64,000 nucleotides of DNA from Mytilus galloprovincialis (taxonomy: Eukaryota > Mollusca > Bivalvia > Mytilida > Mytilidae), in NCBI RefSeq assembly GCF_965363235.1, contig NC_134844.1:78709244-78773243 (forward strand). Reading direction: 5' to 3'. Within the stretch, counting starts at the first letter, position 1. Each line of letters opens with the position of its first letter. Positions 1 to 25,688 of this stretch are shown here, piece by piece. A program made the position numbers and the translations under genes. The notes beneath the pieces are model-generated. The model saw only the letters and a program-made list of their open reading frames with translations, was not told the DNA's origin and did not search any database.

Positions 1-3000
1 TCAGGACAAATGGAAAGCATTAAGTGAGGTATGTACTTTATACAGATAGCTGTGTGATTATAAATGTGTTTGAAATCAAAGTATTGCATATCTTTATCGA
101 TATTTTAAGTTTTAAAAAATTATAGGTTATAATGAACTTGATTTATTTATTTAATAGATTTTTTTGTTAATATTTCGAATTCTTTTCATCCCATTATACT
201 TGACAATTGCAGGCAATAATATGCTTTAATGGTGGACACAGCCCTCGTGGTATTATAGACATTTTGCATTGCGACCTCGATGGCTCGTATAATGGTGATA
301 TTGTGACATCCTTATCGACTGAGATCGATGAAATGAAAAGTGACCTCACATTGGTTGAAGATGAAAACAATCACATGAAAAAAGTACTCAGGAGAACTGA
401 ATTACAACTAGAAAATGTTCGAAGTGACTTTTACTATTATAAAGATGGCTATCTACCAAAAAATATATCAGGTTGGTTGTAATAAGATAGTAAGATACAA
501 CTGTAGACAAAATAGCTTTTTAAGAGGAACATGTTGTTGTGATCAATTTTTATCGTTTGAGCTTCAGTCCCTTTAATTATTGTTCAGATGAGTTATAATA
601 CTATCCAGTTTGTACTTAAATTGGACTTTAAATCGTTTTCATTAGACACTGATGCGTATATTGTAGACAAAATGCACGTCCGGCGTTTAAAACAGTGGCA
701 TTAAATTTGTAGCTTTGGAACTAATTAACGATAGATACACTTAAAAACATATGATACATTTGAAGAAAAAAAAACAAGTACAAAGTGAGTACAAATTTCA
801 GGATCAGAAAACTTGCTGAATCTGTCAGTTGTTTGTCAAGTTGACACATTATTTATGATGTTATGAGTGTATGGTGCTTAAGATTTCCTGAAAGTAATAA
901 TAACTAATTCAGAAACCGAATAAAGATTTTTTGAGTTCTAAACAGTTTCTCTAATTCCAGATCTTAAGATTTCTGCTGGTACACAAATTAACAGTGATAT
1001 ACTTATGCATATATAATACATTGATAAACAATAACAACAACAATTGAAAGTATTTTGCATGTTTCACCGAAATAAACTTCTACTGAAGATAAAGACAAAT
1101 ATTTGCAGGTTACATAAAACAATTAATTGGTTTTAAAAATATTGTCAATTTAAGGTATAATTTGCAAAAGTACTATTTTTGTCCATTGTTATCTTTCTAA
1201 AACAGGTTCTTCTAACAGGTTCCACATCTTAATATATATTGGGAGGGGTTGGAGGTCAGTAGAAATGCCAATAAAACAATCAAATATCGTTAAGGAAAAC
1301 AAGAACTTTTCGTTTTGAATTTTCTTTGGGGTTCGGTATGTTTATTATCTTATTTTTCAAAGGGTTTCAATGACTACAATATTATAGTGTTTAAAACACA
1401 CAAAGTTCTATTTGATGAACATTTCGACAGGAACTAAAATCCCTAACACGTCTAAAACAAAAACTAAATTAAATAGATACTAACAGGGTACAGATCCATC
1501 AAAGCAAACTTTTATTAGATTTCAATAACATTTCAGATAATATTAAAGATTTGATTAACAAATGGAGAAAAGATGACGAAACTTTTTTTGTGACTAGAGC
1601 TACAAAACAGGTATATGATCGGTTAAAATCTGAAAATATTGTCATGATAGTTGGTTATTCTGGTTCGGGAAAATCTGCAATGGCTCACAATGTAGCCTTA
1701 AAATGGCTTACATTCGGTTATGATGTTGTTCCAGTGGAATCTGTTGAACAAATATTGGAATATAGATGTAAAGAAACAAAGCAAATCTTTGTGATGGACG
1801 ATGCAGTAGGGAAATACTCAGTAAGCGATTCCTATGTCAATCAATGGGAAAGACTAGATTCGAAACTATCAGCTTTATTTACTGACAATAATGCAACACT
1901 AATTTGTACATTGCGAAATGTTTTGGCTATTGATAAAAAATTCAAGTCGGCGAAAACTATTTTGAGCGACAAAGCTTATGTCATGGATTTAGACCATGAA
2001 AACAACTGTCTTTTAAGCGAGGAAAAATTATCGATTTTAAAAAATCATTTAATTTACACTGATAGGCAAAACTATATGAGCGATGAGGAATGCAGAGAAT
2101 GTTGTAAAGCGAACTTTGCCTTTCCTCTATTATGTCATGTTTTTACAACAAGTGACAAATTGTTTCAGCGCAAATCAGAGTTCTTTCAAAAACCATTCAA
2201 TTATCTAAATGATGAGATTACGAAACTGCATCAAAGAAACAAAGAAGTATATTGTTCATTAGTAATATGCATGATTTTCATACAAAAGTTTAGTGTAACT
2301 ATGTTTTCCGTATCTGATTGCTCAAACAAGGAACAAAGCGGGCACATTTTAAGCATGATCTCTGAGGCATGTGGTCTTCTTCGTAATATTTCAAGGCAGA
2401 CATTATTTGAAAGTTTGATATCTGTAGAAGGCGTGTATATAAAAAACATTTCTGGAAAAATTACCTTTTTACACGATTCCTTTCTAGAAGCTATTAGTTT
2501 TCATTTTGCAAAGGTGAATTTATGTGTATTTTTAGAATGTTGTGATTGTCAATTTCTTATGCAAAGAGTAAGGGTTATATCTCCACAGGCCAACGATGAT
2601 CAAAATGTAATTGTATTGCAAGAGGACTCTTTTTGCCATTTAGCTAACCGATATATAGCAGAACTAAAGAAAGGTAATTTCATGTATGTATTATCCAGCC
2701 AACCGATTAAAGAAGAATCATTTGTTAAAGTTATTGGCAAGGTAATAGACAGTGGACACTATGTATCTAAAAAAAGGATTATGGAACAGAAAATCAATGA
2801 TAAAGCTTTTTTGAAATGGTTGCGTTTTGATCCCGTATATAGACAAGACGGTGCTATGGAAGCAGTTGCTGCAATCTTAGAGATTTTTCCTACAGACAAA
2901 ACATTGTTTCATTGGGTCATAGCCACTGGTCGTTGTTGTTTTTTCAACTACTTTTGGAAAAACATTTCACAAAAGCAACAACAAAAATACCTTCGAGCAG

Positions 3001-5333
3001 ATAAGTCTATGTTCTCACTAGCTTTATTAGGCGGTTGCAAAGAAATTATAAAACGAATGCTCGAAAGTGGTGCAGATGTTAATTCTACCGAAAGTCAATA
3101 TGCCTTGCAGAGAATTGTAATAAATGGCAGACACACTAAATTGTTACCATTTTTATCAATAAATGGAATTAGCATGAGTTTTATTCATGATGGAAAGTCA
3201 CCGCTTTTCTATGCAATTACAACAAAAAATCTGAAAACGCATGCGTTCTTAGTTGAAGAAGATTCAAAGCAGAACCCGCTGCATAAAGCTGTTTATTATT
3301 CAAACATTGAACAAGCAGAAAAGCTTTTAAAGATCTATAACATAAACTTGGTTTCAAAAAATGGTTGGTCGGTTTTTCATTTTGCTGCATATAATAATGA
3401 CATCACAATGATGAAGTGTATTTTCCAAACTATTATTAAAGGATATGTGTCGTCAGACAAAAGTCATAAAAAAGCTTTAAAATTTAATGATCTGTTTTCG
3501 GCTATTGACAAAAGAGACAAAATTGGATGGAGTCCTCTTCATTTAGCTTTTATCTTGTGTAATTATGAAATCGTTGATTTTTTAATTAACAAAGACGCAG
3601 CAGATTATACAGGCAACCTTGATGAAAAATCACTTCTACACTTTCCTTGCAATGAACAGTTAAGTGGCTCTTTATTACAATACGAGCATTGTTTAAAGAA
3701 ACAGACCTCTCAAATGATTTCAACCGTATCACGACATCAACCTACAGAAGACATCACTTATTGTAAAGATCTAGCAACAAGTGTTAGGGATGTTCGTAAT
3801 AACGTGGTCAACCTATGGCTCTACACAAATGAAGTGATAATGGAAAATAACATTGACTTTGAACAAGATAAAGAAAATAATTGGACGCCATTCATGAATA
3901 ACTTTCCAGTTTATCAGGATTTCATGAAAAAAATTCCCAACGATATGAAAAACTGGCGCCCATCTGTATTTGCCTTGATCTATGTAACTTGCATGAATAT
4001 TCTTTTCTTTTGTTTTTCCGTTATAAGGTTCCGAAGGAAGATTGATTTACCTGACAATGAAGGTAATACCCATCTTCATGCTGCTGCATCTAATGAAAGT
4101 CAAGATGACAGCATAGAATTAATAAAAAGGCTTCTGAAAAGAGGAGCTAACCCATTATTTTATAACATTAATGGTTGCAAGCCGTCTGATGTTGCGTTTA
4201 ACAATAGATCATATAGAGTAAAACTATTTCTGGATGTACATTCAATGAATGCATCGAAACAAGGCACTGTAGTTCTTGTTTTAATGACAATCATTTCATT
4301 CCTTCTGGTCATAACTCTATGTTTAGCTTCATACTTTGTATGTACAAGGTTTCAAAACTTTGATGTAATGCACAATATGAACAATGCTTCTACATGTATA
4401 AGTCAATTTCACAATTATTCAAATACCGATGTTAAAGATAAACCAAGACAGGCGCTACGGATGCAAGAAACCAATAAAGAGATATTTTCGTTTTATAGTG
4501 ATATTAATCTTAGCTCACAAAACAACTATTTTCCAGACTTATCTTGGGATAGAATTGAAAACAATCAGAACATGTACTTACAATTGTTCATTTGCATTCA
4601 TGTCTTGTCAATTTATTATGTATTGTTTTTTAATGTTACTTTGGCACTGCAAAAAAAAATTCTATCTACAAACAAATCAATTCCCTTTGAAGGCTTTTAC
4701 TATATGTATGTTCATTTGGCAACAGCTTTTGATTTGACATATATTTATTTCTTTAAACAGTCAAAATTTGAAATACTGAAATTTATTATTTTAGACTTTT
4801 GTTTTATGAACTCACTTGTTTTATTTATTGATACAAGTTTAAGTTTAAAGCAAATATACCATTCAGACTGGTTTATGTTCATTCCATTTCCATTCAAGTT
4901 TTTATACTTTTGCTTGTTTACATATATTGGAAGAATATTTTATCCTCCTGTTCGTAAGTTAATTCTAAGAATGGTATTTATAACCTTTACATTTGCAACT
5001 CCAACAAGTTGGTCAATTATGTTAATTTTAGTTAGCTTTTTCTTTGCATTTTGTGCTATTCATATTTACATCAATGTTATTCCTTGTTGTTTGTATCTAA
5101 TTTTGTTAAAAGTGTGGGAACAATACAAAGAGTTTCGCATATACTCATATTGTTTGCAACTCAGCATCTTTTACCAGACTTTTCATAGCCCCCTTTGTGT
5201 CTTTCCCCGTTTGGGCAATCCATCGTTTACATGGCTAAATATTTTTCAAGCTACTCTTATTTTTATTTTGATCAATTTTGAAACTTTCTTTTTCACGATT
5301 CAGTCTCTCCATATTGACATGTTATACCTTTGA
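1..5333 (+). CDS. Gene A: HEPN-STAND NTPase-ankyrin-multi-TM protein, 5' end outside the window
   Basis: Three coding pieces are visible: the end of an exon at 1-28 (reads QDKWKALSE, donor GT at 29), an exon at 213-471 (phase 0 in, phase 1 out) and a last exon at 1537-5333 (stop TGA 5331-5333). The 213-471 exon is a charged, coiled-coil-like linker. The last exon starts with a STAND-type P-loop NTPase: Walker A GYSGSGKS at 1653-1676 and Walker B IFVMDD about 110 bases further on. Ankyrin-like repeats follow at about 2998-3660 (SPLHLAF and similar). The C-terminal third holds roughly eight hydrophobic segments (about 3964-4025, then 4265-5310), with one further ankyrin-like unit at 4030-4230 between the first two. 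An Asn-rich loop near 4380-4560 has NxS/T sites, so it may be luminal or extracellular. The HEPN exons expected upstream lie outside the window; this is inferred from gene B. The domain calls are recognition by eye. The role as a sensor or cell-death switch is inferred from the STAND family. Confidence 0.85.
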
Positions 5334-6096
5334 ATGATGTCGATAATGATAATTGCAACTTTTTAATGATATGTCCTCTTTTATTGGTCAGATATTGAAC
5401 TGTTTTTTTTATGATTAACGAGTTTTATATTGCCAAACGTACGTCTGACTTAATGAGTTACTAAGTGTATTTGACGTTTTCAAAAAGTCATCTTTTAAAA
5501 ATTAGAAAATAAAATAAGTTTCAAGCATTAATTTCTAAAAAATGAAGAGTAAACATGGACTTATGTCAAATTGTTAAACATATTTGAAGAAATAAAACAA
5601 AAGATTTGTTATTCAACTTTAAGGATGTGAATTTAAGCATGGATGCAATTTGGTTACTCCACATTACAGAACCGTTGATCGTTTGGATTTATATCATTGT
5701 TTCTATGATTTAATATGGATTCCAAATAAAATTAGTGCAACCATATAATAAATAATGATACATCTACAAAATAAACAAGTAATGGAAACTTTTATCTAGA
5801 GCATAAATAAACGTTGGTGAAAAAACCTGTTAGAATAGGTATAATATAAGTACCCTCATTCAAATGAAGTCCAACGAAATATTTTACCCTGCAAACATCA
5901 ATAAATCACCAATTCGATTTTTGTCTGAGTGTTGTTCTGCTTTAGAATTGTTGTATGTCTAAGATATAACTTGCAAGTATTTATAGCACTTAACTTATTT
6001 CTGAAATAAAGATTTGAAAAAAGAAATAAACCTTATTGTCAGCTCTGTATGCATTATTTTGTTTTATACTTAGACATATATTGGTTACTTTTATTA
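5334..6096. other. Gene A 3' flank
   Basis: This is AT-rich sequence with several possible AATAAA poly(A) signals (for example near 5510, 5590 and 5728). I see no coding potential. The 3' untranslated region of gene A probably ends here, but the cleavage site cannot be placed. Confidence 0.4.
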
Positions 6097-6319
6097 ATTG
6101 TGACAATTTGACTTAGAATGAGTTTGCATAGCAGATAAAACAGCACTAGTTCTTCGATGTTCAAATCTTATTAATTGTACACAAAATAGACAAAGGTTAC
6201 AAACAAAAAAAATATTGAATCGTAAAAGGAGGAAGAACAGACGCAACAAAAAACTAAGCGTCTCCTGCTATGCTGAGTTATCCGCTATGCAAACTCATTC
6301 TAAGTCAAATTGTCACAAT
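6097..6319. mobile_element. Foldback MITE-like element, 223 bp
   Basis: Terminal arms of about 41 bp at 6097-6137 and 6279-6319 are inverted copies with one mismatch seen. Each arm begins ATTGTGACAATTTGACTTAG when read inwards. The 140 bp between them has no coding frame. The shape is that of a non-autonomous DNA transposon; no target-site duplication is clear, so the family is not assigned. Confidence 0.65.
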
Positions 6320-6429
6320 CCAAGTAAGACACTGTCCATAAAATAACAGATTAAATGACTTCTTTAGTATCTTATGATTTTAGAAAACGTTCTACTACTA
6401 ATTGTATCCTGCTTTAAAAAAACAAGTTA

Positions 6430-6860
6430 GTGTATAAGTTTTACCTCTGTCAGTCAGGCCGTCAGTCCATCCATCCATCAGACAGTCCGTCCGTTCGTCA
6501 ATTGGTTTGTCCGTCCCATATATATTTTAAGTCGCAACTTTCTCACGGACATAAGGATTTCTGAAATTTGGTTTCAGGGCTCATATAAGTCAGCTTTACC
6601 GTGTGATGCCTTTTAAGATTCATCACTCAAAAACTTCATGTTTACCGAACACTTGTATCATTTTACACATGATAGCCTTTTTGTATATTTTAATCACATT
6701 TTTCTCAGGAACTACAATACAAGGATTTGTGAAATTTGGTTTCAGGTTTCATATAAGTCAGCTTTACCGTGTGATACGTTTTCAGATTCATCACACCACA
6801 ACTTCCTGTTTACCGAAATAATTGGGGCGGGGTATCATCAGTGAGCAGTATCTCTACATT
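6430..6860 (+). repeat. Dispersed mollusc repeat with a doubled internal unit
   Basis: A CCGTCCGT/CATCCATC simple-repeat head is followed by a unit of about 180 bp that occurs twice (about 6550-6660 and 6720-6820), sharing TTGGTTTCAGG and AAGTCAGCTTTACCGTGTGA. It ends with GGCGGGGTATCATCAGTGAGCA. I recognise this as an abundant bivalve interspersed repeat. The short frames inside it are not genes. Confidence 0.65.
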
Positions 6861-7002
6861 ACACTTACACACAATGTTATCGAGAAAAAATTCTCACATT
6901 TATTCAAATGGTCTTTTGAACAATCTCCTTGCAAATTTATTTGCTGAAACTCTTTTAAAGCCTTTTTCTGTGACGATAAGGGTAAGTAAGCTATATACAC
7001 TT

Positions 7003-7152
7003 ACTAGAAATGTAAAGACATGATTGAAGCTTTAAATTTTCTCCAGGAAGACATATATGTACGTTTCGGCAATAGCGTGTATCGACAAGTAGTAGCCCAA
7101 TGAGCAGTAACTGTGCACCTTTAATAACAGATTTAATCCTGTATTGCTATGT
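7003..7152 (+). pseudogene. Eroded reverse-transcriptase fragment
   Basis: Translation gives DMIEALNFLQEDIYVRFGN and then, in another frame, PMSSNCAPLITDLILYCY. This matches the conserved RT block seen at 59299-59613 (GIPMGTNCAPLLADLFLYYY). It is a short fossil of a non-LTR reverse transcriptase, probably Penelope-like or related, with no complete domain left. Confidence 0.6.
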
Positions 7153-8283
7153 ATCCCAGTTTATGACCAAACTTAATAAAGATATGTTAGTGTTACATTT
7201 GGTTTATACATTCATCAATACCTACCGTTAACTTGATGATAATTTTTCTGTAAATAATTCAGAGCTCTGTAAACTAACTACTGACATTTACCTAAATGAA
7301 CTTACTTCAATTAAGTCTTACATAAACATTCAGCAGTAGTTGCCCTTTTCCAGATTTAGACAATTGTATTTCTCAATGAAAACTCTATACTGAAATTTAC
7401 GACAAAAGCGACGCTTTTGTCATTCACTATTATCAGTTTGCTTTTTTTAGACGGCGAAGTTACTTTAGCTCAACAATACGGTGCTTATCTATTCCATTGC
7501 GTTCGTTATGTCCATGTGCAAGAAGTGATGTCAGAAATTTTAACGAACGTAATCAATGTATCACTGGTAAATTAGGGATTTCGCTACTATGAATTACTTA
7601 AAACTTTAATTAAATTCTTTCATAGGTTCAAGTATAGATTAGCTGTACCTGTTAGCTGTACCTAACTCACAAAAACGTTATTTCACAACCTCAATTTTAC
7701 GGTAATATTGTACTAAAGCGCGGAAATCACTATCTGATCAGTGTAAACTCATCGAACCTTTAAACAAACTTTAAAGTACATAGATATAAGAATTATACAC
7801 CCGCAGTATTAATTTATGGTATAAGTGCCAATATGGGTTATCTTACAAATATTGTAATCATATCTTTGAATTTAGTTAATATGGGCACAAATATCGATTT
7901 TTTTATTTAGTAAATTAAAACATAACTAAATTTGTATTCTTTTCAAAAGTTTTTTTAGAGATGTAAACATACACATCTACCTTCATTTTCAATATAAATA
8001 TTACTCTATCCATGAATACATTATACTTATTTATCAAAATGAGACTCCTATCTATTCTACTGCCTGTCGATACTATTATTTTTGGCATTGCACAAGTTAT
8101 GTCTTCTTTGACTGTCCATACCGTTAAAACAGTAAATCATGTAAATCCCTGAAATGTGTTTTAGCTGATTTGGTCCCGGGTGCATAATTTCCTTTATTAC
8201 AAATTGTTTTTGTCCATGGTTATGGTTGTCTTTCTGATATTGTTTAACATCTCATCCCTTGATTAATTGAATTTTGTCATATT

Positions 8284-8417
8284 TCAAATTCATTCGTTCA
8301 GTGTATGTTCACTTGTTTGTGTCAATATGTTTTTTGATACAGTTAAGATATCAAATTCATTCGTTCAGTGTATGTTCACTTGTTTGTGTCAATATGTTTT
8401 TTGATACAGTTAAGACA
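8284..8417 (+). repeat. Exact tandem duplication, 2 x 67 bp
   Basis: A 67-base unit beginning TCAAATTCATTCGTTCAGTG occurs at 8284-8350 and again at 8351-8417, with only the last two bases differing. It lies at the edge of the dispersed repeat that follows. The near identity suggests a recent slippage or unequal exchange, or an assembly duplication. Confidence 0.85.
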
Positions 8418-8429
8418 TTTTAATTGATA

Positions 8430-10990: not shown

Positions 10991-11079
10991 CACACTCTAC
11001 TCTTGCTTTCTTACAACGACAGAGAAAGGGATAATGGAAACAGTTATTATAATCATATCTTCTCAACACGTGTATGGGA

Positions 11080-11187: not shown

Positions 11188-11189
11188 GA

Positions 11190-12885: not shown

Positions 12886-13004
12886 TAGATTTAAATAAGA
12901 TTTTAGATCTGAATAACATTAGCCATGGATGTGTGTTTAATTATCAAGTAAAGGATTCCGTCACCACAAATTATGTAACTTTTACAAAAATAAATCATAG
13001 ATAG

Positions 13005-14183: not shown

Positions 14184-17100
14184 ATGGCAGTGTCGACACT
14201 GAGACTTACTGTAGAAGAAAAGAATTACTGGAAATTTTGCATGCTTAATGTCAGAGTGGTACCAGATGCACTTCGAAATTATTTTGACGGGCTAATACCA
14301 CCTACAAGTTTAGCTACAACAATCAACCAAAACTCATCGACAATTTCTTACCTTGTTACAAGAAAAGTTATCAATGCTGCACAACTTAATATACTACAAA
14401 GAATACCTGGAACCATATGGCCACTCAAGAGCACTCGCGTTCTCATTGGAACAACTGGTATTATAACATCATTCTTGTTGTATCTAATATGTTATGCTTT
14501 TCTAGTTTGTATAATGAACCTAGTATCATAAATGATTTTCGTACAAAAAAAACCTAAATCCTAAGTATTGTTTAAAGATTATTTTCATTTCTTTACCTTT
14601 CACCTGATATATCTTTATAACCTTTTTTTTATAACTTCATAGCAATACATATATAATATACATTCATTAAAGGAACTAGGTTTATAATTTAGTAATACTT
14701 TTGTGTATTTATAAATTCAACTGTTAGGTTTAAAATATACCTAAATGAATGATGAATGACAGATGGAAGATAACAAGCAAATAGACACAACTCATATGTC
14801 GTAGGAAAACTGTATCGCCATAGCAATAAATCAACAACGAAAAAACAAGTTAAAAAGTGATCTACTAAAATCCCAACAAGACCATGGTCAAAATCCAGAA
14901 GGTTTAGCAAATACAGGACATTTAGTGTTGCGCATCAAATATGATACTATGATAAAATTTAATATACCTATTTACTTTAAATTAAGAATTTTAATTCCTC
15001 AATAGCATTTTTATATATAAAAAACATAGCATAGTGTTAAGACCAAGATGATGACAGATAAGCGGCAAGTAAGAATGCATATAAATCTGACCCTTTTTAC
15101 CGATTCAGTTAAAGATTTTAATAGTTTAAAATACAATAACTCTTTAGAATAAAAATGACAATAGCAAGTATCAGAATCTAGTATCATTCACCGAACTGTT
15201 TTAGGGAAAAAAGGTAAAGGAAGGGAATGTTTTCCGTGTATAATTTGAAAATAACGTGTACTACGTACATAAGCTTTCCTTGAACTTTAAAATGTATATA
15301 ACGTCTCTAAAAACAATACCATCAAATTAATTTCCTGCTAAAATTAAAAGGTTGATACATAAATGACTTAGACATCTTCTTAAATTTTTTCAGCTACATC
15401 TTCTGCAGATTTTGATGTTAGCTTGTTAGTATGTTTATTAAGGAACATTCCATTACCAGGAATATACCCACCCACATCGGGATGGGATAATCTACCTAAT
15501 CCTCATGACATATCTCCGGGGGCTCATTTAGCAAGAATAAAGTACTATCGCAATGAGTTGGCACATGCAACTGAGAACAACTTAAACATCTTGGATTTTC
15601 AGGACCGGTGGGCAACAGTAACCGAGGTTTGTATTGAATTCACGGATCTATAGTATTTAAGGAATAAAATATTATTTCAAAAACAACCCTCCGAAGTTTC
15701 TGTTCCTAAGCTTGGTAAGTATGAAACTCATTTTATTCAATGACGATAAATTAATTTACTTCACGTACTAGTGCCATTTATATTGTGACTCCAAGAATAG
15801 TTGAAACAATTTTAAGTCTGCAATAAGCCGCCAGCTATAGCAAAAATACGATGTACACAGATCAAGAAGACGGTACTATGTAGGGCAAACATAAACCTTG
15901 AAATTTGATTTTGGATCGTATGTTTTTGTGTTGAGATGTACCATATCTTTTTTTTTTTGTTCAATCAAATAAAGTCTTACCCAAAAAGTGTATATATACT
16001 TATATATATATATATATACTGGCAAAAAGTTTTGGAATAGACTTGTGCAGTACGTCAATTATCCTGAATTGTGATACAATTTCTTATTTTTGTTGTGCTA
16101 CCGGTAGTATAAAAATTAAAGTCGGTGGTGTCTTAAAACACTGTTGATCTTCTGTACAATCGTGTGTAAAAGCAATGTAAATTTCAACAGGTTCCCCTGT
16201 TATATTGACCAACGATGCAGTGAACAACAATGTGTCAACCTGAGTTTGTAATCTTTTGCGAAAAAATCTGGTTGATAAGTATAATTTTTAATCCTTGTTT
16301 TCAAAATTCCAATAGGGAACATACCTTTTATAATTGTATAAATAAACCAATTGTTCAGACGTTTCGGCCATTGGCCTTCTTCAGTTATTTATTATTCCTC
16401 TAAACTACATGGCTGACATTTGTTTTTTCAAACATTGAAAAGATGTTATAGATAAATGTCCTTGGAAACATCATGACGTCATAATACTCTAACGTCATAA
16501 TAACATGACGTCACAATACTTTTGTATGAATGAAAGTTAAATTATATAAGTTTTGATCAATTAAAGTCATTCCTTTTTAACGTTAATTCCAAATGGTCTA
16601 ATTGTATTTAATTTTTGCATCCATTGTGCCTCAATATATCTCCTGTAATTTGCGGATTTATCGTAAATCTGTTGCAGAACCTGAACTGTGATGTCCTCTT
16701 TACAATGATCTTCTTGGTTAAAATGTTCTGCCACAGCTGTATCTCTATCATGTCTGATATCTGCTAGATGCTCTTTTATTCTTTCGTTGAGTGATCTTTC
16801 TGTTTCTCCAACATAGACATAGTGGTTACATTTTTCACAGTGAAGTCCATAAATAAGGTTCACCAGTTGACATCCATGAATGTTCTTTTTGAGGTTGAAT
16901 GTTTTATCTCCGAGTATAATTTTTTCTTCATGTCTTTCAATATCGCAAACTTCACATTCTTCTTTACATGTTTTGTTGCTGTTGTAGTTAGTACATTTTT
17001 TGGTGATCTTATTTAGTTTTCCATGTACAATTATGTCTGCTAAGTTTCTATCTCTTCGATAAGCTACTAGTGGTGGTTCTGGAAATATTTCTTTCATCAA

Positions 17101-20100
17101 GTTACAGTTATGTAAAATATTAATTCTTTTTTTCACAATGTCATGAATATCAGGTAGTAAATCAGCAAAGGTTACAACAAGAGGTATGCGTTCTGATGTT
17201 TTTTTAATTTTATTTTTTCTCTGTAATAACTCTTTTCTATTTCACATTTAAACTTTTTAAATTCCTGCATTAAAGACAACGTGGTTCCAAATGGATTTCA
17301 ACTAAAATGGAAATTTAATCTAGATGCAAAACCAGAAATCATTCAAAAAGGCAAAATGGTACTTCATGATGCGTCAATGAAACTCTTAAACTTATCGATT
17401 AATGTATGTGAAAACAAAATTAATGAAACTAGTATTACCCTAAATCAACTGTCCAATAAACTATGTGATACAGATGTAGATAGTTACTACAAAATCAAAA
17501 TGGAAGCAAGAAATTTGTTAAAAAACAACAAAGAGGAATATGACAACAGAAAGAAATCAAAGATGAAAAGGATAAAAGAAAATCAACTCTACAGCTGCAA
17601 TTGTAATACAGATATGGTCAAAAATAATTTCCAAAAATTGTCAGATCACAGTGGGCAAATCAGGGATGATGACTTTATAAAAATGAAAGTAAGAGGAGAT
17701 GGGAATTGTTTCTACAGATGTATAAGCCTTTTTCTCTATGGCATTGAAAACCACCATAATAAAATAAGACAAGCAACAGTAAAATATATGAAAGAACATA
17801 AACATAGATTTTTACCTTTAATAGACGAAAACTTTAATTTACACATGGCTCATCAATCTATGACTGATGGCACACTAGAATCATGGGCAACAGAAGCTGA
17901 AATAACTGCAGTAAGTGAAATGTATGAATATACAATATTTGTAAAAACTAAAGTAGATGGAGCAGTTACATGGATAAAATATTCACCAATGAATGGTGCA
18001 CATGATAAAGAAAGATGGATAGCCATTGAGCATTTACATAATCATTTTAATTTATTAAAATTTAAGCAGAAAAAGTGTGTATGTAAGCAGATTCATCTTA
18101 CAACAAGTAACATTCAAGAACAAAAGAACATGGTTGGAAACAGAAAGGTACAAAATGATGAGATAGATTGGTTTGATCAAACTAACATGAAAGATAATAG
18201 TAATAAAGACATAGAACCAGTTACGTACAGACCGGAGAAAGAAAAGAAAAGTGTTCAAGAAAACGAAGTCACAAATACAAGTTGCCCAGTCATTAATCTG
18301 TCCAGTAAAAATCTAAATACAGAACATATGTCCTTGTTATCAAAAGGATTGTCTTTCATTCCTGCTCAAAAGAAGGTAAACATTGGTAAAGTTTTAGCAG
18401 ATTTAACAGAATGGGAAAGAAGAATGAGACTAAAAGAATATTTTTACAACATCAAGGAACATGAAGAAGTTAAAGAGAAATCAGAATGCAGCAAAACACG
18501 TAGAAAAAATAAAGATTTTACACCAAAACCAGGAAAAAACATCTGGTTAGATACTTACATAGAGGTAGTTAAAGGAGATGTCATGAATGGTCTGAAACAG
18601 CGCAAATCAATAAATCTTACAACGAAAGAAGAAAACGCTCTTAAAGATATTTTACAAGATGATGATATAGTTATACGGCCGGCAGATAAAGGATCAGGAA
18701 TAGTAGTTATCAACAAAGAAGAATATTTTAAGAAACTAGAAGAGGAAATAACAAACAATGATACTTATTCTGAGACAGAGCAAAACACGACACATCAAAT
18801 TACAAAAAAGGTAAAATCATTAGTAAATAGAATGAAAAAAGAGGGATCAATTTCTGGGGAAATGAAAACTTATTTGATACCAAAACATCCACATCCAGCA
18901 AAATTAAAAGGCAACCCAAAAATCCACAAACAGAACAAACCATACAGAACAATAGTTAATGGGATAGGTACTGCCACTGAAAAAATTGCAGAAATAGCAG
19001 AAAAGGAACTAGATAACTATGTTATCAACTCACCAAGTTATATTAGAGATACTACCGATTTTTTAAATAAACTTTCAAAAGTAAAACAGCCAATACCAAA
19101 AAACAGCATATTGTTTTGTTTCGATGTTGTAAAATTATACCCATCTATTCCTAGAGAAGAAGGAATAAAAGCATGTAAAATAGCTCTTGACACCAGAAGA
19201 AATAAAGAAATACCAACCAATGATATCCTAGAAATGATAAAATTAGTTTTAGAGGGGAATAACTTCAAATTGATTGACAGAGATTTTCTGCAAAATGAAG
19301 GTGTGGCTATAGGGTCAAAACTAGGAAAAAATTTTGCTTGTACTTATATGCGACAATGGGACAAAGCACTGGAAAAATTCAAAGAGAAACCATTGTTTTA
19401 TAAACGTTTCATTGATGATGGTTTTGGAATTTGGACTCATGGCGAACAAAAACTCAAAGAATTTATGGACTTTGCAAACTCAATAAATGACAAAATAAAG
19501 GTGGAACTTAGGTACAACAGCAATCAGATTGAATTCTTAGATACACTTGTGAAAATAAAAAATAGTAAATTAACAACAGACCTTTATACAAAGCCAACTG
19601 ATAAACATATATATGTTCACAGCAAATCATGCCATCCAAAAAATGTAAAAAAGGCAATTCCTTATGGTTTAGCATTACGATTAAGAAGAATTTGTGAAAA
19701 TGAAGATGACTATCAAAAACATAGACAAGAACTAAAATTACAACTGCGAAAAAGAGGCTATAATGGAAAATTTATTGAAAACCAACTAAAAAGAGCAGAC
19801 GACTTAAATAGAAAAGAGTTATTACAGAGAAAAAATAAAATTAAAAAAACATCAGAACGCATACCTCTTGTTGTAACCTTTACTGATTTACTACCTGATA
19901 TTCATGACATTGTGAAAAAAAGAATTAATATTTTACATAACTGTAACTTGATGAAAGAAATATTTCCAGAACCACCACTAGTAGCTTATCGAAGAGATAG
20001 AAACTTAGCAGACATAATTGTACATGGAAAACTAAATAAGATCACCAAAAAATGTACTAACTACAACAGCAACAAAACATGTAAAGAAGAATGTGAAGTT

Positions 20101-23100
20101 TGCGATATTGAAAGACATGAAGAAAAAATTATACTCGGAGATAAAACATTCAACCTCAAAAAGAACATTCATGGATGTCAACTGGTGAACCTTATTTATG
20201 GACTTCACTGTGAAAAATGTAACCACTATGTCTATGTTGGAGAAACAGAAAGATCACTCAACGAAAGAATAAAAGAGCATCTAGCAGATATCAGACATGA
20301 TAGAGATACAGCTGTGGCAGAACATTTTAACCAAGAAGATCATTGTAAAGAGGACATCACAGTTCAGGTTCTGCAACAGATTTACGATAAATCCGCAAAT
20401 TACAGGAGATATATTGAGGCACAATGGATGCAAAAATTAAATACAATTAGACCATTTGGAATTAACGTTAAAAAGGAATGACTTTAATTGATCAAAACTT
20501 ATATAATTTAACTTTCATTCATACAAAAGTATTGTGACGTCATGTTATTATGACGTTAGAGTATTATGACGTCATGATGTTTCCAAGGACATTTATCTAT
20601 AACATCTTTTCAATGTTTGAAAAAAGAAATGTCAGCCATGTAGTTTAGAGGAATAATAAATAACTGAAGAAGGCCAATGGCCGAAACGTCTGAACAATTG
20701 GTTTATTTATACAATTATAATTTTTAAGTTTTAAATCGGAATGATAGTCTAGTTTGCAAACCAACATGTTTGTTATTTATGGGACCTGAATCACTTTGCG
20801 GGAACATTAGTTTACTGATGTATGCATACCCTTCAAGCTAGTGTTTCAGGTCTGTTGAACGCTATATCAAATATATTATATATGTACAACAATTATGAAA
20901 TCATTGCTATCAATCCTGTATGGATGTAACTCCGTGTTAAAAACATGTTAAATGTGTATCTTATCCGCCGTCGACGATGTATTACGCAACATAACAAAGT
21001 TTTAACTAAATAAATATTTAACATAAGCAGTGTATTTTGAATCAAACTTTCGGATTTTCAGGCCATAAAATTCTGTAATGGTGGGCATAATCCTAATGGC
21101 ATTACAGATATTTTGCACGGCGACTTGGATGGTTCGCAGAATGGTGTTATTGTTGCTTCCTTGTCAACACAGATAGAAGCAATCAGACGAGACCTCACTT
21201 TGGTGGAAGGTGAAAAAATCAAGATGGAAAACGAACTTAAAAGAACTGAATTTCAGCTAGAGAATATGTGTAGTGACTTTCACTTTTATAAGGATGGTCA
21301 CATAGCAAAAAATATTTCAGGTTGTTTTTTTGGTATATTTGTTTGTAATATTTTTAAAATGCAACTTTCAGCGGTCCAGGTTTTTATTAGGACAGATTAT
21401 TTTCATTTGGAGATAAAGCAATAGTACCCACAGGGAATCGTCCACAAGGCAAGAAATAAAATTGTTGGTCTTGAAGAGTCTTGCATATCTGAACTGAAAA
21501 TTCAAATTTGTAATTTGCCTTTTAATTCTACATTATAACGAAAATCATATATAAAACACGATTTTACACATTTTGCAAATCAGAAAAAGATGAGAATCAA
21601 GCATTGGCTAACAAACGAACATAAGTTAAATAGTTAGTACATTTAAGAAAACAAATGTTGGTCTCTGTGACGAAAACAACCTATTAATAAGCCTAGGCCT
21701 GTAAAATATAATTACAAATCAATGTCACTGAATTATTCTTTGACATATTCACGCTGACAAATTCAAATAAACTTGGGTATACATAAACTCGTCATAGATA
21801 CCAGAATTAAATGTTTACACAATTGACTCATTAGTGACTACTGGTATCGACTCAAAAATAGTTTAAAAAAAGGATCATATCTGTAAAATACATATAAATT
21901 CATCTTTCCAGATAACATTCAGGATTTAACAAACAAATGGAAGAAAGACGATCAACCTTTTTTCGTCACAAGAGCTGCAAAACATGTGTTTGATAAGTTA
22001 GAAACTGTAAATATTGTCGTGATTATTGGACAGTCTGGCTCTGGGAAATCAGCAACTGCTCGAAACGTAGCTTTAAAATGGGAATCACAAGGTTATGATG
22101 TTGTACCAGTAGAATCTGTTGAAAAAAATTATAGAATATAGATGCAAAGATACACAACAAATATTTGTGATAGACGATCCCATCGGTATATACTCAGTAA
22201 ACGGGTCGTATCTAAATCAATGGGAGATGCTAGATTCGAAACTAAAAGCTTTGCTTAACGACAATAATTCGAAAATAGTTTGTACATTGCGCAAAAACAT
22301 GGCTATCGATACAAGGTTAAGAGCAACGAACACTATCTTGAACGACAGAGCGTACATTATTGACTTAGATCATGAAGACAACAGTCTTAATGGCGTGGAG
22401 AAAATGTCAATTTTAAAAAATCATTTAATTTATTCTAACCGACAAAATGATATAAGCGATGAGGAGTGCAAAGATTGTTGTAAAGCAAAGTTTGCCTTTC
22501 CACTTCTGTGTCATATTTTTACAACAAATGACTGTCTGTTTCATCGTAAATCAGATTTCTTCCAAAAGCCTTTTGATTATCTGAACGATGAGATTACAAA
22601 ACTGCATCAACGAAACAAAAAGGTATATTGTTCATTAGTAATATGCATGATTTTTGCTGGAAGTTTGAATGCAAAAAGTTTTTCTGTTTCTTATGGTTTA
22701 AAAGAAAATAAATTAGAAAATAGACGAATTTTCGACATGATTATTGAGTCTTGTGGTCTAGATCGAAATACTTCAAGACAGGCATTGCTTGACAGTTTGT
22801 TATCCGTCGAAGGCGTTTATATAAACATATATTTAGGAACAATTGTTTTTTTACACGATTCTTTTCTTGAAGCTATAAGTTTCCATTTCGCAAAAGTGAA
22901 TCCATGCATATTTTTAGAATGTTGTAAAACAAAGTTTCTAAGGGAAAGAGTTAGGGTCATATCGAAACAGGTTAACGACGATCAGAACGTTATTGTATTA
23001 GAAGAGGAATCGTACTGTCATTTAGCCACCCGATTTATAGCTGAACTAAAGAAAGGTGAATTTATGGATATATTATACAGCCAACCTATTAAAGAAGAAA

Positions 23101-25688
23101 AATTTCTAAAAGTTATGAGTAAGGTAATCGACCGTGGACACTTGATTACTAAGCAAAAACTAATGAAAACAAAAATATCTGATAAAGCGTCTGGAAAGTT
23201 AGAGAATTTCGATTGTATATATAGACAAGAGTATAATATGGAAGCAATAGCAGCAATAATAGACATTTTTCCAGCAGACAAAACATTATTTCACTGGACA
23301 ATAGCAACTAGTTGTCATAATTTCATGAACTATTTTTGGAAAAGTATGACAAAAAAGCAGCAAAAGAAATATCTTCGAGCAGATAGGTCTATTTTCTCAC
23401 TAGCTTTATTAAGCGGTTGCAAAGAAATTATTATACTTATGCTTGAAAGTGGTGCAAAAATTAACACTTCTGAAAGTCAGTATGCCTTACGAAAACTAGT
23501 GATTGACGGCAGGAATACTACATTATTGGAATGTTTGATACAAAATGGAATGGGAATTAATTTTATCGACTATAATAATAAATCGTTGCTTTTCTATGCA
23601 ATATCGTCAAAGAATTTGAACTTTCAGACATTACTTATTGAAACAGATTCAAGGCAAAATGCATTACATAACAATGTGTTTAATGGCAACATTGAAGAAA
23701 CAAAAATTCTTCTCAGTACTTATAATTTAAATTGTGTCTCAAATTACGGTTGGTCAGTATTTCATTTTGCAGCATATAATAATGACACCAACATGATTGA
23801 ACTTATTTTTGAAACTACAATGAAACGGTGTAACAAAATAGATCGAAATCGTAAAACAGCTATGAAATGTAACGATATTTCAATCTCTATTGATAGACAG
23901 GACAATATTGGCTGGACTCCTCTTCACTTAGCGTCTGCCTTGTCTAGATATGAAGTTGTTGATTTTCTTATCGGAAAAGGTGCGAATCCCTTGCTTGTGG
24001 ACCTGGATGGAAAAACACCTTTACATTTTTCTGGTAATAAACGGATAACTAGTGCTTTATTAAAACACAAGGATATCGCAAATGAATCGACCATGTCGAT
24101 TTATGAAGGAAATAGAAAGACGTCTAATAATGAAATACAATTACCTGAAGAACTACTTCATTTGAACCTAGATACTACCTTTATGACAGATTTCACCAGA
24201 ACAGATGATCAACCTGAATATATCAGAGATATTCTTATTGAATGGGAAAATGGTCGCCGTTACTCTCAAGAAGTAATAGAGGAAAATAACATTCACTTTG
24301 AACAAGATAAAGATAAAAATTGGAAGCCATATATAAAAGATTCTGCAGTATATCAGGACTTAGTGAAGAGAATTCCCGAACATATGAAAAACTGGTACCC
24401 GTCTATATCTTCCTTGATCTATGTTGCTTGCATGAATATTCTTTTCCTGTGTTTTTCAATTATTAAGTTCCGGAGGAAGATTGATTTACCAGATAAAGAA
24501 GGAAATACACTTCTCCATGCTGCTGCAAGTATGGAAAATCAAGATGAAAGCATAGTATCTGTGAACATGCTTTTAGAAAGAGGAGCCAATCCCTTATTTT
24601 ATAACATTCATGGCTGTATGCCATCTGATGATGCGTTTTACAATCGGTCATACAGATTAAAAGTAATCCTAGATATATATTCAATGCATGCAGCTAAAAA
24701 GGGGTTGAGAATTCTTGTTTTAATTTCAATCATAACGTTTTTTCTATTTGTATGTCTTTGCTCCGCTTCCTACTATGTCTGTCCAGTATATGACAATGGT
24801 GACGAGAAAAACAATTCCTATGATGTTTCTAATAGTTACTTTAATAATCATCCAAATAACAATTTAACTAGTTATCTTAATCTTACTACGCAAAATATCA
24901 GCAGTTTTGTGCTGTCTGGAAACACGACTGAAGACTATCAGTATGAATACATACAACCCTTCAGTTTCATTCACCCATTTTCTTTTTTTTGCGTATTGTT
25001 TCTAAATATAATTTGGCCAATTGGTAAAAAAATGCTATGTAGACATAACTATTTTCTTTTTGAATACGTTTATATGTATGTGCATTTGACATCACTTTTA
25101 CATCTAACATCAATTTTTTTCTCTAATAAGGAAAAACAAGAAATATGCAGATACATCCTTATGTCGTTTTCGCTTCTAAGCCTATTTGTTTTCCTCGTCG
25201 ATCTAGTTTTAAGTTTAGTAAAAAAATACAATGCAGAATGTTTAACGTTCTCTACAGTTTCATATCTGCTTTTGTTCAATTGTTTTGTTACATTTTTTGG
25301 TGTAATTTTTTTTAATCCGTTCAATAAGTTATTCTCGGGCGTATCTTTTATAAAAGACATGTTTGAGAATTTATCAAGTTGGTCGACGATGTCACTCTTA
25401 TTTAGTTTTATAGGTACATGTGTTGCTACTTATATGTATATCAATGTTTGTTCTTGTTGTGCGTATTTGATTTTATTGAAAATATGGGGTAAATCCAAAA
25501 ATTTACGTGAATTATCATATCATTGGCAACTTAAGGCCATTTACCCTACTTTTCATAAACCAATCATTTCTTTCCACCGACTGGGCAGTCCCTCTTTAAA
25601 ATGGCAAATTATTTTTCAATCTACTTTCATCCATATTTTGCTCATTTTTGAAACTATTGTTTTTTACGATTCATATCATATTGGCTAA
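14184..25688 (+). CDS. Gene B: DZIP3-like HEPN-STAND NTPase-ankyrin-multi-TM protein, with a frameshift
   Basis: This is a tandem paralogue of gene A with the same exon plan. I place coding exons at 14184-14457, 15394-15626, 21062-21320 and 21912-25688; the junction phases agree (1, 0, 1). Exons 1-2 encode a DZIP3-like HEPN domain with the RNase-type motif RNELAH. Exon 3 is a charged coiled-coil-like linker. Exon 4 has Walker A GQSGSGKS (22028-22051), Walker B IFVIDD, ankyrin-like repeats (about 23370-24090) and a tail of about eight hydrophobic segments. A run of seven A at 22122-22128 puts the frame out by one: read straight, exon 4 stops at TAG just after the P-loop, while the next frame is open from 22119 to 25688 and matches gene A throughout. 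This is either a real inactivating indel or a sequencing or assembly error in a homopolymer. A 5.4 kb intron (15627-21061) holds a Penelope-like insertion. Confidence 0.82.
15394..15626 (+). CDS. Gene B exon 2: HEPN catalytic-motif exon
   Basis: The exon starts after a TTTTTTCAG acceptor and ends at GAG|GTTTGT. It reads DFDVSLLVCLLRNI and then LARIKYYRNELAHA. Arg and His of the R-x4-H motif lie at 15549-15566. In the HEPN superfamily this motif forms a metal-independent RNase site. The surrounding words are those of the DZIP3-like HEPN domain used by many bivalve and other invertebrate proteins. The frame joins exon 1 at a phase-1 junction (ACT G|CT). Whether it cuts RNA is not shown by sequence alone. 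Confidence 0.8.
16280..16291. repeat. Candidate target-site duplication, left copy
   Basis: TATAATTTTTAA occurs here and at 20716-20727 on either side of the Penelope-like element. The right copy overlaps the last bases of the inverted repeat. The word is AT-rich, so chance cannot be excluded. Confidence 0.5.
16328..17242 (-). repeat. Inverted copy of the Penelope element 3' end (left arm)
   Basis: This is the reverse complement of 19806-20720; paired positions add up to 37048 all along the arm. It contains a minus-strand frame at 16567-17136 identical in protein to the C-terminal 189 residues of the main ORF, including the GIY-YIG nuclease. The mismatches seen are one in an untranslated stretch near 16420 and one in the sequence upstream of that frame near 17167. 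Just after the arm ends the sequence becomes unique, and the main frame continues. Confidence 0.9.
16358..16384 (-). ncRNA. Mirrored hammerhead-like core
   Basis: This is the exact reverse complement of the motif at 20664-20690, carried in the left inverted arm. It would be transcribed from the minus strand. Confidence 0.45.
17281..20481 (+). CDS. Penelope-like polyprotein: OTU protease, reverse transcriptase, GIY-YIG endonuclease
   Basis: The 1066-residue frame begins with GTG at 17281; the frame is open from 17230 and the first ATG is at 17356. Because family-like sequence (VPNGFQLKWKF) lies before that ATG, the true start may have been lost at the junction with the inverted copy. An OTU cysteine-protease domain lies at about residues 130-265: DGNCFYR gives D140 and C143, and HFNLL gives H255, so the expected Asp/Cys/His set is present. 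The reverse transcriptase lies at about 470-800, with CFDVVKLYPSIP (motif A), GVAIGSKLGKNFA (motif B) and RFIDDGFGIW (motif C, D712-D713). A Cys-rich knuckle (CKEECEVCD) precedes the GIY-YIG nuclease at about 970-1020 (YVYVGETERSLNERIKEH). RT plus C-terminal GIY-YIG is the defining Penelope layout; the N-terminal OTU domain is unusual. No introns are apparent. Confidence 0.9.
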   Translation: MVPNGFQLKWKFNLDAKPEIIQKGKMVLHDASMKLLNLSINVCENKINETSITLNQLSNKLCDTDVDSYYKIKMEARNLLKNNKEEYDNRKKSKMKRIKENQLYSCNCNTDMVKNNFQKLSDHSGQIRDDDFIKMKVRGDGNCFYRCISLFLYGIENHHNKIRQATVKYMKEHKHRFLPLIDENFNLHMAHQSMTDGTLESWATEAEITAVSEMYEYTIFVKTKVDGAVTWIKYSPMNGAHDKERWIAIEHLHNHFNLLKFKQKKCVCKQIHLTTSNIQEQKNMVGNRKVQNDEIDWFDQTNMKDNSNKDIEPVTYRPEKEKKSVQENEVTNTSCPVINLSSKNLNTEHMSLLSKGLSFIPAQKKVNIGKVLADLTEWERRMRLKEYFYNIKEHEEVKEKSECSKTRRKNKDFTPKPGKNIWLDTYIEVVKGDVMNGLKQRKSINLTTKEENALKDILQDDDIVIRPADKGSGIVVINKEEYFKKLEEEITNNDTYSETEQNTTHQITKKVKSLVNRMKKEGSISGEMKTYLIPKHPHPAKLKGNPKIHKQNKPYRTIVNGIGTATEKIAEIAEKELDNYVINSPSYIRDTTDFLNKLSKVKQPIPKNSILFCFDVVKLYPSIPREEGIKACKIALDTRRNKEIPTNDILEMIKLVLEGNNFKLIDRDFLQNEGVAIGSKLGKNFACTYMRQWDKALEKFKEKPLFYKRFIDDGFGIWTHGEQKLKEFMDFANSINDKIKVELRYNSNQIEFLDTLVKIKNSKLTTDLYTKPTDKHIYVHSKSCHPKNVKKAIPYGLALRLRRICENEDDYQKHRQELKLQLRKRGYNGKFIENQLKRADDLNRKELLQRKNKIKKTSERIPLVVTFTDLLPDIHDIVKKRINILHNCNLMKEIFPEPPLVAYRRDRNLADIIVHGKLNKITKKCTNYNSNKTCKEECEVCDIERHEEKIILGDKTFNLKKNIHGCQLVNLIYGLHCEKCNHYVYVGETERSLNERIKEHLADIRHDRDTAVAEHFNQEDHCKEDITVQVLQQIYDKSANYRRYIEAQWMQKLNTIRPFGINVKKE
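19806..20720 (+). repeat. Penelope element 3' end (right arm of the inverted pair)
   Basis: This arm holds the last about 225 codons of the polyprotein, the stop at 20479-20481, an untranslated tail with repeated TGACGTCA-like words, and the terminal block GGCCAATGGCCGAAACGTC. It pairs in inverted orientation with 16328-17242. Confidence 0.9.
20664..20690 (+). ncRNA. Hammerhead-ribozyme-like core in the element terminus
   Basis: CTGAAGA, then a GGCC-AAT-GGCC hairpin, then GAAAC and GTC follows the order of the hammerhead core (CUGANGA, stem II, GAAA, cleavage after UH). Penelope-like elements are known to carry minimal hammerheads at their ends. There is an extra A between the core and stem II, stem III would be only two pairs, and the stem I pairing next to the core is weak, so activity is uncertain. 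The mirrored copy is at 16358-16384. Confidence 0.5.

What the first reader, a model, noticed from the sequence alone, without database searches (positions are those of the whole stretch)
1..25688. Tandem pair of HEPN-STAND-ankyrin genes with a multi-transmembrane tail
Genes A and B share an architecture I do not know as a named family: a DZIP3-like HEPN domain with an R-x4-H RNase-type motif (seen in B), a coiled-coil-like linker, a STAND P-loop NTPase, ankyrin-like repeats and about eight membrane segments. STAND proteins usually act as ligand-triggered switches and HEPN domains often cut RNA. Anchoring such a switch to a membrane suggests an innate immune or cell-death sensor. The domains and exon phases are seen in the sequence; the role is inference.
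Basis: partly seen in the sequence, partly recalled or inferred. Interest (0 to 1): 0.85.

Follow-up and report, generated by a model that had tools for sequence, protein, structure and literature searches.

The report
Membrane-bound RNase switch gene array
A mussel-like animal carries a row of six related genes whose proteins join a likely RNA-cutting domain, an ATP-driven immune-type switch, ankyrin repeats and a probable many-pass membrane anchor, which would tie a defence switch to a membrane in a way I found no description of.

Summary
A and B are the last two of six same-strand tandem copies; four lie upstream of the window. Each has four exons, with GT-AG junctions at conserved phases where readable: DZIP3-type HEPN (5e-27 with exons joined), a coil-like exon, then one giant exon with nSTAND3 (8e-29), ankyrin repeats (8e-23) and a hydrophobic tail. 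A, C3 and C4 are intact; B has a one-base frameshift after the P-loop, C1 a stop, C2 is degraded.

The first 'membrane segment' is probably a helix between ankyrin repeats; about seven others follow, with one sequon-bearing loop that would face outside. Sequence profiles of the tail hit nothing credible beyond ankyrin. A dispersed sister clade on five other contigs shares the design; in 10 of 10 sampled more distant nSTAND3 genes the open frame has no hydrophobic segment.

Best reading: a membrane-integral, NLR-like switch whose oligomerisation turns on HEPN RNase. Architecture well supported; function inferred. No expression data, other species or usable structure model were available.

The parts
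1..28 (+). Gene A: end of exon 2 (HEPN core; most of it lies upstream of the window, G000:C7:78709039-78709271)
213..471 (+). Gene A exon 3: end of the HEPN match plus coil-like linker (phase 0 in, phase 1 out)
1534..5333 (+). Gene A exon 4, one open frame of 1265 aa: nSTAND3, HD (MHD-like) motif, ankyrin repeats, membrane tail
1584..2051 (+). Gene A nSTAND3 NTPase (exon-4 residues 17-172), Walker A GYSGSGKS, Walker B IFVMDD
3279..3608 (+). Gene A ankyrin repeats, best-scoring stretch (exon-4 residues 582-691); a further ankyrin pair lies at residues ~835-900
4269..5330 (+). Gene A polytopic membrane tail (exon-4 residues ~912-1265, ~7 hydrophobic helices, loop ~931-1016 with 3 N-glycosylation sequons)
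   Evidence: hydropathy only
14184..14457 (+). Gene B exon 1 (HEPN N-terminal part), ATG start, phase 1 donor
15394..15626 (+). Gene B exon 2, HEPN core with YYRNELAH
16328..20720 (+). Retroelement insertion in intron 2 of gene B: ORF 17230-20481 with OTU domain; 915-bp inverted arms 99.8% identical (16328-17242 / 19806-20720)
   Evidence: the name Penelope-like is recalled
21062..21320 (+). Gene B exon 3, coil-like linker
21912..25688 (+). Gene B exon 4 (nSTAND3, ankyrin, membrane tail) interrupted by a one-base frameshift at the A-run 22122-22128

Best explanation
Shown: a family of four-exon genes encoding HEPN(DZIP3-like) - coil-like linker - nSTAND3 - ankyrin - hydrophobic tail of about 7 segments. 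It exists as a six-gene tandem array (T7) plus a sister clade (Td) on five other contigs. Inferred: the protein sits with HEPN, NTPase and ankyrins in the cytosol and its tail in a membrane. At rest the NTPase is ADP-locked (conserved HD motif). A ligand, read by the ankyrins or passed through the membrane tail, frees the NTPase to bind ATP and oligomerise. Oligomerisation brings HEPN domains into pairs, which builds the composite RNase site, and RNA near that membrane is cut, stopping translation or killing an infected cell. In effect it is an NLR-like switch with RNase L/Ire1-like output, fixed to a membrane.
For: HEPN, nSTAND3 and ankyrin profiles. R-N-x3-H kept in 5 of 6 array copies, the sixth (C2) being degraded, and in 6 of 7 HEPN exons fetched next to sister-type NTPases. 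STAND motifs in 24 aligned nSTAND3 genes: GK[ST] in 24, hhDD in 23, H-D in 22, T-x-R in 20. Purifying selection strongest in HEPN and STAND (dN/dS 0.12-0.34 and 0.22-0.31), weaker in ankyrin (0.33-0.53) and tail (0.37-0.56). Topology: sequons concentrate in one long loop that is outside if the N-terminus is cytosolic (array 1-5, sister clade 4-7), and short even-numbered loops are often K/R-rich (in L036 one helix was missed, which shifts its numbering). Array and sister clade form one branch, 100/99. Precedent: nSTAND3 is the switch in the antiphage protein Avs5 (PMC12931631, passages); the DZIP3-type HEPN is fused to NACHT, ankyrin, Death and CARD in animals (PMC3710099, passages).
Against: No expression, infection or biochemical data. 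Both AlphaFold jobs, each on two window sequences, failed (mean pLDDT 34.3 and 33.9), so neither the fold nor the number of helices is confirmed. Transmembrane helices come from hydropathy only, and A's tail does not exceed composition shuffles by count. Three of six array genes carry lesions in this assembly. In finer cuts of the tail some pairs approach or pass dN/dS 1 (up to 1.14). All six sister-clade proteins in the tree have an altered Walker A (S-x4-GKT) and one HEPN exon has lost the histidine (RNQLAR), so activity need not be universal. The membrane is not identified (plasma membrane or ER).
Confidence: 0.5

Rival explanations
1. The membrane tail is the effector: on activation it forms or opens a pore or channel, as plant resistosomes do at the membrane, and HEPN is a secondary or regulatory output.
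For: Polytopic tail with about 7 hydrophobic segments after ankyrins, a layout also seen in ankyrin-bearing ion channels (recalled); present in both clades.
Against: No match to an ion-channel family: Pfam at E<=10 on 5 array tails gave only ankyrin and two weak, unrelated hits; of the PDB hits listed (60 of 70 and 60 of 280), aligned stretches fall on the ankyrin part. The tail changes fastest, unusual for a pore. STAND pore effectors known to me are N-terminal (recalled). A channel fold is not excluded, since no structure model was usable.
Confidence: 0.17
2. Membrane scaffold: the protein works like Kidins220/ARMS (ankyrin + P-loop NTPase + membrane helices), organising signalling complexes, with HEPN used for RNA or protein binding.
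For: Ankyrins and membrane spans in one protein, as in Kidins220/ARMS (abstracts in the listing; its P-loop NTPase is recalled).
Against: The NTPase is nSTAND3, and no KAP NTPase model appeared among the Pfam matches shown. The catalytic R-x4-H is kept, and tandem copies with lesions suit an immune repertoire better than a housekeeping scaffold.
Confidence: 0.12
3. Surface receptor: the outside glycosylated loop is the sensing part and the ankyrins only transmit, so this is an outside-in RNase receptor.
For: In the array the loop varies in length (53-86 aa in five copies) and sequence; of 10 pairs, 2 have dN/dS above 0.8 and 7 are at or above 0.6. The sister clade has a different long loop with 3-4 cysteines.
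Against: dS is often near 1, so these ratios are rough. Fast change may be simple lack of constraint. No ligand or cell-surface data.
Confidence: 0.15
4. Non-functional decay: the array is a set of dying duplicates and the tail is a read-through of chance hydrophobic sequence.
For: C2 is degraded, C1 has a stop, B a frameshift. A's tail does not exceed composition shuffles by segment count.
Against: A, C3 and C4 are open over 1477-1521 codons in four exons. dN/dS over whole segments is below 0.6 among A, B, C3 and C4. The tail recurs with the same layout in the array and, in similar form, in the sister clade.
Confidence: 0.06

Closest known systems
HEPN(DZIP3/hRUL138)-STAND repeat proteins of bivalves and cnidarians (e.g. 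Pinctada HEPN-NACHT genes, PMC9646362; cnidarian HEPN-NACHT, PMC8260672; passages seen)
   Same: N-terminal DZIP3-type HEPN (R-x4-H common in Pinctada), central STAND NTPase, C-terminal repeats, large lineage-specific expansions.
   Different: NTPase here is nSTAND3, not NACHT; repeats are ankyrin; a polytopic membrane tail is added. The passages I saw of those papers mention no membrane tail on such proteins.
Avs5 (AVAST type 5) antiphage proteins (PMC12931631; passages seen)
   Same: Tripartite effector - nSTAND3 - helical repeats.
   Different: Bacterial, Sir2 (NAD hydrolysing) effector, TPR/Sel1/PPR repeats; no membrane tail is mentioned in the passages seen.
Kidins220/ARMS (abstracts in the listing; domain details recalled)
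   Same: Ankyrin repeats, P-loop NTPase and membrane helices in one protein.
   Different: KAP NTPase, no HEPN, different order of parts (recalled).
Ire1 and RNase L (KEN domain, HEPN superfamily; PMC3710099 passages; mechanism recalled)
   Same: HEPN-superfamily RNase switched on by oligomerisation; Ire1 is membrane bound and RNase L has ankyrins.
   Different: Kinase-type rather than STAND control; different HEPN family; one membrane pass in Ire1.
Crassostrea virginica TRADD-N receptor-like expansion (PMC8195603; passages seen)
   Same: Bivalve immune-type proteins joining a membrane part with STAND, HEPN or ankyrin domains.
   Different: Single N-terminal membrane helix with a Cys-rich ectodomain, plus DED and TRADD-N, which were not among the Pfam matches here.

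Membership tests
DZIP3/hRUL138-like HEPN (PF18738) | Profile match above curated cut-off (27 bits) | tested here: met
   94.9 bits for A and 88.8 bits for B with exons joined
DZIP3/hRUL138-like HEPN (PF18738) | R-x4-6-H RNase motif | tested here: met
   RNE[IL]AH in 5 of 6 array copies; the sixth, C2, is degraded
DZIP3/hRUL138-like HEPN (PF18738) | RNase activity | not testable with these tools
   needs purified protein
nSTAND3 STAND NTPase (PF20720) | Profile match above cut-off (27.2 bits) | tested here: met
   A 100.7 bits, C4 96.3 bits; B in two pieces, 43.3 and 41.2 bits
nSTAND3 STAND NTPase (PF20720) | Walker A and B plus HD (MHD-like) motif (motif set recalled) | tested here: met
   5 of 5 array rows (C2 not included); HD in 22 of 24 rows overall
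NACHT NLR | NACHT domain above cut-off (26.7 bits) | tested here: not met
   13.2 bits in A, 22.5 in the B P-loop piece, 15.1 in C4
NACHT NLR | C-terminal LRRs | tested here: not met
   ankyrin repeats and no LRR among the matches shown
Kidins220/KAP family | KAP NTPase domain | tested here: not met
   no KAP NTPase model among the Pfam matches shown for A, B or C4 (one list was cut at 25 of 34)
Ankyrin-bearing ion channels (TRP-like) | Ion-channel transmembrane profile | tested here: not met
   no such Pfam family at E<=10 in 5 array tails; PDB hits shown fall on ankyrin only
Ankyrin-bearing ion channels (TRP-like) | Channel fold of the tail | tested here: inconclusive
   AlphaFold model of the tail has mean pLDDT 34.3; no fold search run
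Polytopic membrane protein | Several membrane-spanning helices | tested here: inconclusive
   hydropathy and sequon/charge pattern agree; no experiment and no dedicated predictor

The most novel reading that the evidence does not exclude
A previously unnamed class of animal immune receptor: a multi-pass membrane STAND protein whose fast-changing, glycosylated outside loop senses invaders or damage across the membrane and whose cytosolic nSTAND3 switch then assembles HEPN RNases. It would be an outside-in receptor with direct RNA-cutting output, held as a diversifying tandem array plus dispersed sister genes.
Probability: 0.17. Interest if true: 0.85.

Novelty: new variant of a known kind. Interest (0 to 1): 0.55.

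Why it matters
Most STAND/NLR-type sensors known to me are soluble until activated. Here the gene itself seems to build in a multi-pass membrane part, next to an RNase-type domain and a switch shared with bacterial antiphage systems. That makes a defined question testable: does a STAND switch in a bivalve cut RNA at a chosen membrane? Three intact genes, clear point mutations (HEPN R/H, Walker A, HD) and natural broken copies are at hand. It also suggests that membrane attachment arose more than once among nSTAND3-ankyrin genes of one genome: a polytopic group and a separate group with a single C-terminal helix.

Tried and rejected
Structure prediction of the tail and of NTPase plus ankyrin, each with two window sequences, gave no usable model (mean pLDDT 34.3 and 33.9), so no fold search was run. 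Profile search of the tails against PDB sequences and Pfam found only the ankyrin pair among the hits shown, apart from two weak unrelated Pfam hits. Profile comparison of array and sister-clade tails found secure similarity only in that ankyrin pair (prob 97) and no secure similarity in the membrane part (prob 49); their common origin rests on the NTPase tree and gene layout. Search of solved structures with the NTPase part and with the HEPN-coil part gave nothing useful. PADLOC gave ankyrin and candidate-system hits only. No HEPN exon was found by tblastn in the 4.0-4.5 kb upstream of two of the three single-helix genes (only chance-level pieces), which does not rule it out. Paper searches with these domain names found no description of this architecture in the listings and passages seen (open-access library only). 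Considered and rejected: HEPN and NTPase exons as separate genes; NACHT NLR; KAP family.

Other species could not be surveyed: the collections at hand are bacterial, archaeal, viral and plasmid.

Full report
WHERE IT IS. The window is G000:C7:78709244-78773243 of an unnamed 1.38-Gb genome in 331 contigs. The HEPN matches fall on contigs C1 and C3-C14. Fourteen large contigs and this size would suit a mytilid mussel, but that is recalled and no call names the species.

THE ARRAY. Open-frame listing of the window plus 78 kb upstream and tblastn with the exons of A and B show six same-strand copies, called C1, C2, C3, C4, A and B. Exon 1 starts at window -64201, -48722, -34041, -22208, -1244 and 14184. 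Exon 4 starts 2.3 to 7.7 kb after exon 1 (the longest, B, includes the retroelement). No seventh copy was seen from about 98 kb upstream of the window to about 20 kb downstream of it; a distant relative (28%) lies downstream at window 78160-77237 on the other strand.

THE GENE MODEL. Each copy has exon 1 (about 92 codons), exon 2 (77 codons), exon 3 (about 86 codons) and a giant exon 4. Where the frame could be read, junctions are GT-AG with phases 1, 0 and 1; C1 has a shortened exon 3 whose donor I did not place, and C2 is degraded. Spliced models of A, C4 and C3 are open from ATG to stop: 1521, 1486 and 1477 aa. The HEPN_DZIP3 match is 80 bits for B's exon 2 alone and, with exons joined, 88.8 bits for B and 94.9 for A, covering profile 1-138 and 1-137 of 144. 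Whole-segment dN/dS between copies: exon 1 0.12-0.34, exon 2 0.12-0.33, exon 3 0.20-0.32, NTPase 0.22-0.31, middle 0.27-0.41, ankyrin 0.33-0.53, tail 0.37-0.56 (exons 1-2 on five copies, the rest on A, B, C3, C4; dS 0.21-1.30, so these are rough). In finer cuts of the tail some pairs approach or pass 1 (1.14 for A-C1 and 0.86 for A-B over TM2-TM4, 0.99 for A-C3 in the long loop, 0.96 for A-B over a 43-codon block).

LESIONS. B: a one-base length change at an A-run just after the P-loop splits exon 4 into two overlapping frames. C1: one stop in exon 4. C2: stops and frame breaks in several exons. Intron 2 of B contains a retroelement whose 915-bp inverted arms are 99.8% identical, so the insertion is probably young. 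Its ORF carries an OTU domain (2.3e-11); that it is Penelope-like (RT and GIY-YIG) is recalled from the look of the sequence, since Pfam at E<=1 gave no such match.

THE DOMAINS. A exon 4: nSTAND3 8.3e-29, Ank_2 8e-23. Motifs in 24 aligned nSTAND3 genes of this genome: GK[ST] of Walker A in 24; Walker B hhDD in 23 (L042 has DN); T-x-R in 20 (S or N replaces T in L030, L035, L027, L041); FP-x-x-C in 22 (not L045, L032); H-D in a winged-helix-like position in 22 (L032 HS, L033 HE). All five array rows have the full G-x4-GKS; all six sister-clade rows have S instead of the first glycine. That the HD plays the part of the NLR MHD motif is my inference.

THE TAIL. After the last ankyrin pair, A, B, C4 and C3 have 4, 6, 6 and 8 hydrophobic segments at GES>=1.5, and five sister-clade proteins have 6 each; the open frames of ten tail-less nSTAND3 genes have none. 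One of those ten (L027) is cut by the end of the fetched stretch, and later exons were not looked for, so 'tail-less' means within the open frame. Composition-shuffled tails average 1.3-3.5 and reach 4-7: B, C4, C3 and L036 exceed their shuffles; A (4) and L038, L039, L040 and L049 (6 each) do not, so for these recurrence and topology carry the weight. The hydrophobic stretch before the ankyrin pair (A residues 812-830) has in its place in the sister clade a stretch with no segment above threshold (placed by eye; counts; the profile alignment starts only after it). I read it as an inter-ankyrin helix, which also spares an ankyrin pair from lying outside the cell. With a cytosolic N-terminus, sequons concentrate in the loop after helix 1 in the array (1-5 per protein, five copies) and in the long loop before the last one or two helices in the sister clade (4-7 sequons, 3-4 cysteines, five proteins). 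This is loop 5, hence outside, in four of five; in L036, where one helix fell below the threshold, it counts as loop 4. Single sequons also occur in other loops. Helix counts at the looser threshold were 6-8 in five array tails and 6-7 in five sister tails.

RELATIVES IN THE GENOME. HEPN_DZIP3 has 711 first-look candidates (150 scored, all over the cut-off) and nSTAND3 682 (22 scored, all over). The nSTAND3 search also rings in all 14 control genomes (7 over the cut-off), so unscored candidates may include other NTPases; the HEPN search rings in none of 14. The array tail as query finds 7 matches at 6 places, all in the array. The sister-clade tail finds 15 matches at 9 places on C3, C4, C10, C12 and C14; one (C3:97.99M) is a tail with no NTPase detected in the 4 kb fetched and one (C10:38.4M) is full of stops. 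L037 has its tail in a second frame and L049 lacks part of the middle. HEPN exons fetched near sister-type NTPases read RN-x2-AH in 6 of 7; the seventh, C7:49.2M, reads RNQLAR, and that locus belongs here by its NTPase (34%) while its tail was not found. An exon-1 match (52%, 7e-28) was found at the one locus tried for it and an exon-3 match (31%, 6.5e-13) at the one tried for that. The NTPase tree of 24 rows puts the 5 array rows and 6 sister rows on one branch (100/99), the 3 single-helix rows on another (100/99), and 10 tail-less rows elsewhere (midpoint root). The choice of rows was not random: 6 of the 22 scored, the rest from the hits plus one neighbour of the array; C2, the fragments L047 and L048, and four near hits (C7:49.19M, C14:2.546M, C14:2.550M, C4:51.81M) were left out. 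The single-helix group (L042, L043, L046) ends in one hydrophobic helix at the extreme C-terminus, like a tail anchor. So membrane attachment appears at least twice, unless it was lost in between.

HOW IT MOST LIKELY WORKS. The parts match a three-part switch: effector (HEPN), NTPase (nSTAND3), sensor (ankyrin), as in Avs5, where the same NTPase family accompanies a Sir2 effector against jumbo phage (PMC12931631; passages). HEPN RNases are commonly built from two subunits (recalled), which STAND oligomerisation would supply. The new element is the tail, which would fix the switch to a membrane before activation. Which membrane, and whether the tail senses, anchors or conducts, is open. Cutting viral or stress RNA near the membrane is my favoured output because HEPN is among the most constrained parts, with the motif in 5 of 6 copies.

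COMPARISON WITH WHAT IS KNOWN. HEPN_DZIP3 fused to TPR, Zn-ribbon, RING, ankyrin, CARD, NACHT, Death and LRR, with expansions in Nematostella, oyster and Capsaspora, is listed in PMC3710099 (passages). HEPN-NACHT expansions are described in Pinctada (PMC9646362, passages) and cnidarians (PMC8260672, passages). Crassostrea virginica has receptor-like proteins with an N-terminal Cys-rich ectodomain, one helix, DED-TRADD-N and variable STAND, HEPN or ankyrin parts (PMC8195603, passages). Passages of PMC9334734, PMC7773633 and PMC11817969 added nothing on this architecture. None of the passages I saw describes HEPN-nSTAND3-ankyrin with a multi-pass tail; nSTAND3 by name or accession appears in only two papers of the library searched. 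I therefore file it as a new variant of HEPN-STAND-repeat proteins.

VERDICT. Architecture: about 0.9 likely as described. Membrane-integral, STAND-controlled HEPN RNase switch: 0.5. Outside-in receptor with RNase output: 0.15-0.17. The finding is real, larger than first described, and moderately surprising; the missing pieces are transcripts, other species and a structure.

Noticed in passing
window 16328-20720: Probably young retroelement in intron 2 of gene B with 915-bp inverted arms (99.8% identical) and an ORF combining an OTU-type protease domain with what looks like a Penelope-type RT and GIY-YIG end (the last two recalled, not matched by Pfam).
   Followed up: partly
L042:263-2764, L043:276-2786, L046:3-2531: Three nSTAND3-ankyrin genes elsewhere on C7 end in a single C-terminal hydrophobic helix, like tail-anchored proteins; they form their own branch in the NTPase tree.
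   Followed up: partly
L036, L037, L038, L039, L040, L049: The dispersed sister clade has an altered Walker A (S-x4-GKT) in 6 of 6; five of its tails were analysed and each has a long loop with 3-4 cysteines and 4-7 sequons, between helices 5 and 6 in four of them (in L036 one helix fell below the threshold).
   Followed up: yes
G000:C7:49209700-49210250 (L056): A HEPN exon upstream of a sister-type NTPase in which the catalytic histidine is replaced (RNQLAR), a possible inactive or decoy copy.
   Followed up: no
L047 (C3:97.99M): A sister-clade membrane tail with no NTPase detected in the 4 kb fetched and an ORF of possible retroelement origin nearby.
   Followed up: no
window 53467-54645 (-): DDE_Tnp_4 transposase-like ORF (3e-37).
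   Followed up: no
window 60861-61757 (-): Beta-propeller-like ORF (SBBP 1e-6; SGL 8.8e-6, just below its cut-off).
   Followed up: no
window -71532 to -68818: Upstream of the array, two frames that look like a broken GIY-YIG/RT retroelement (name recalled).
   Followed up: no
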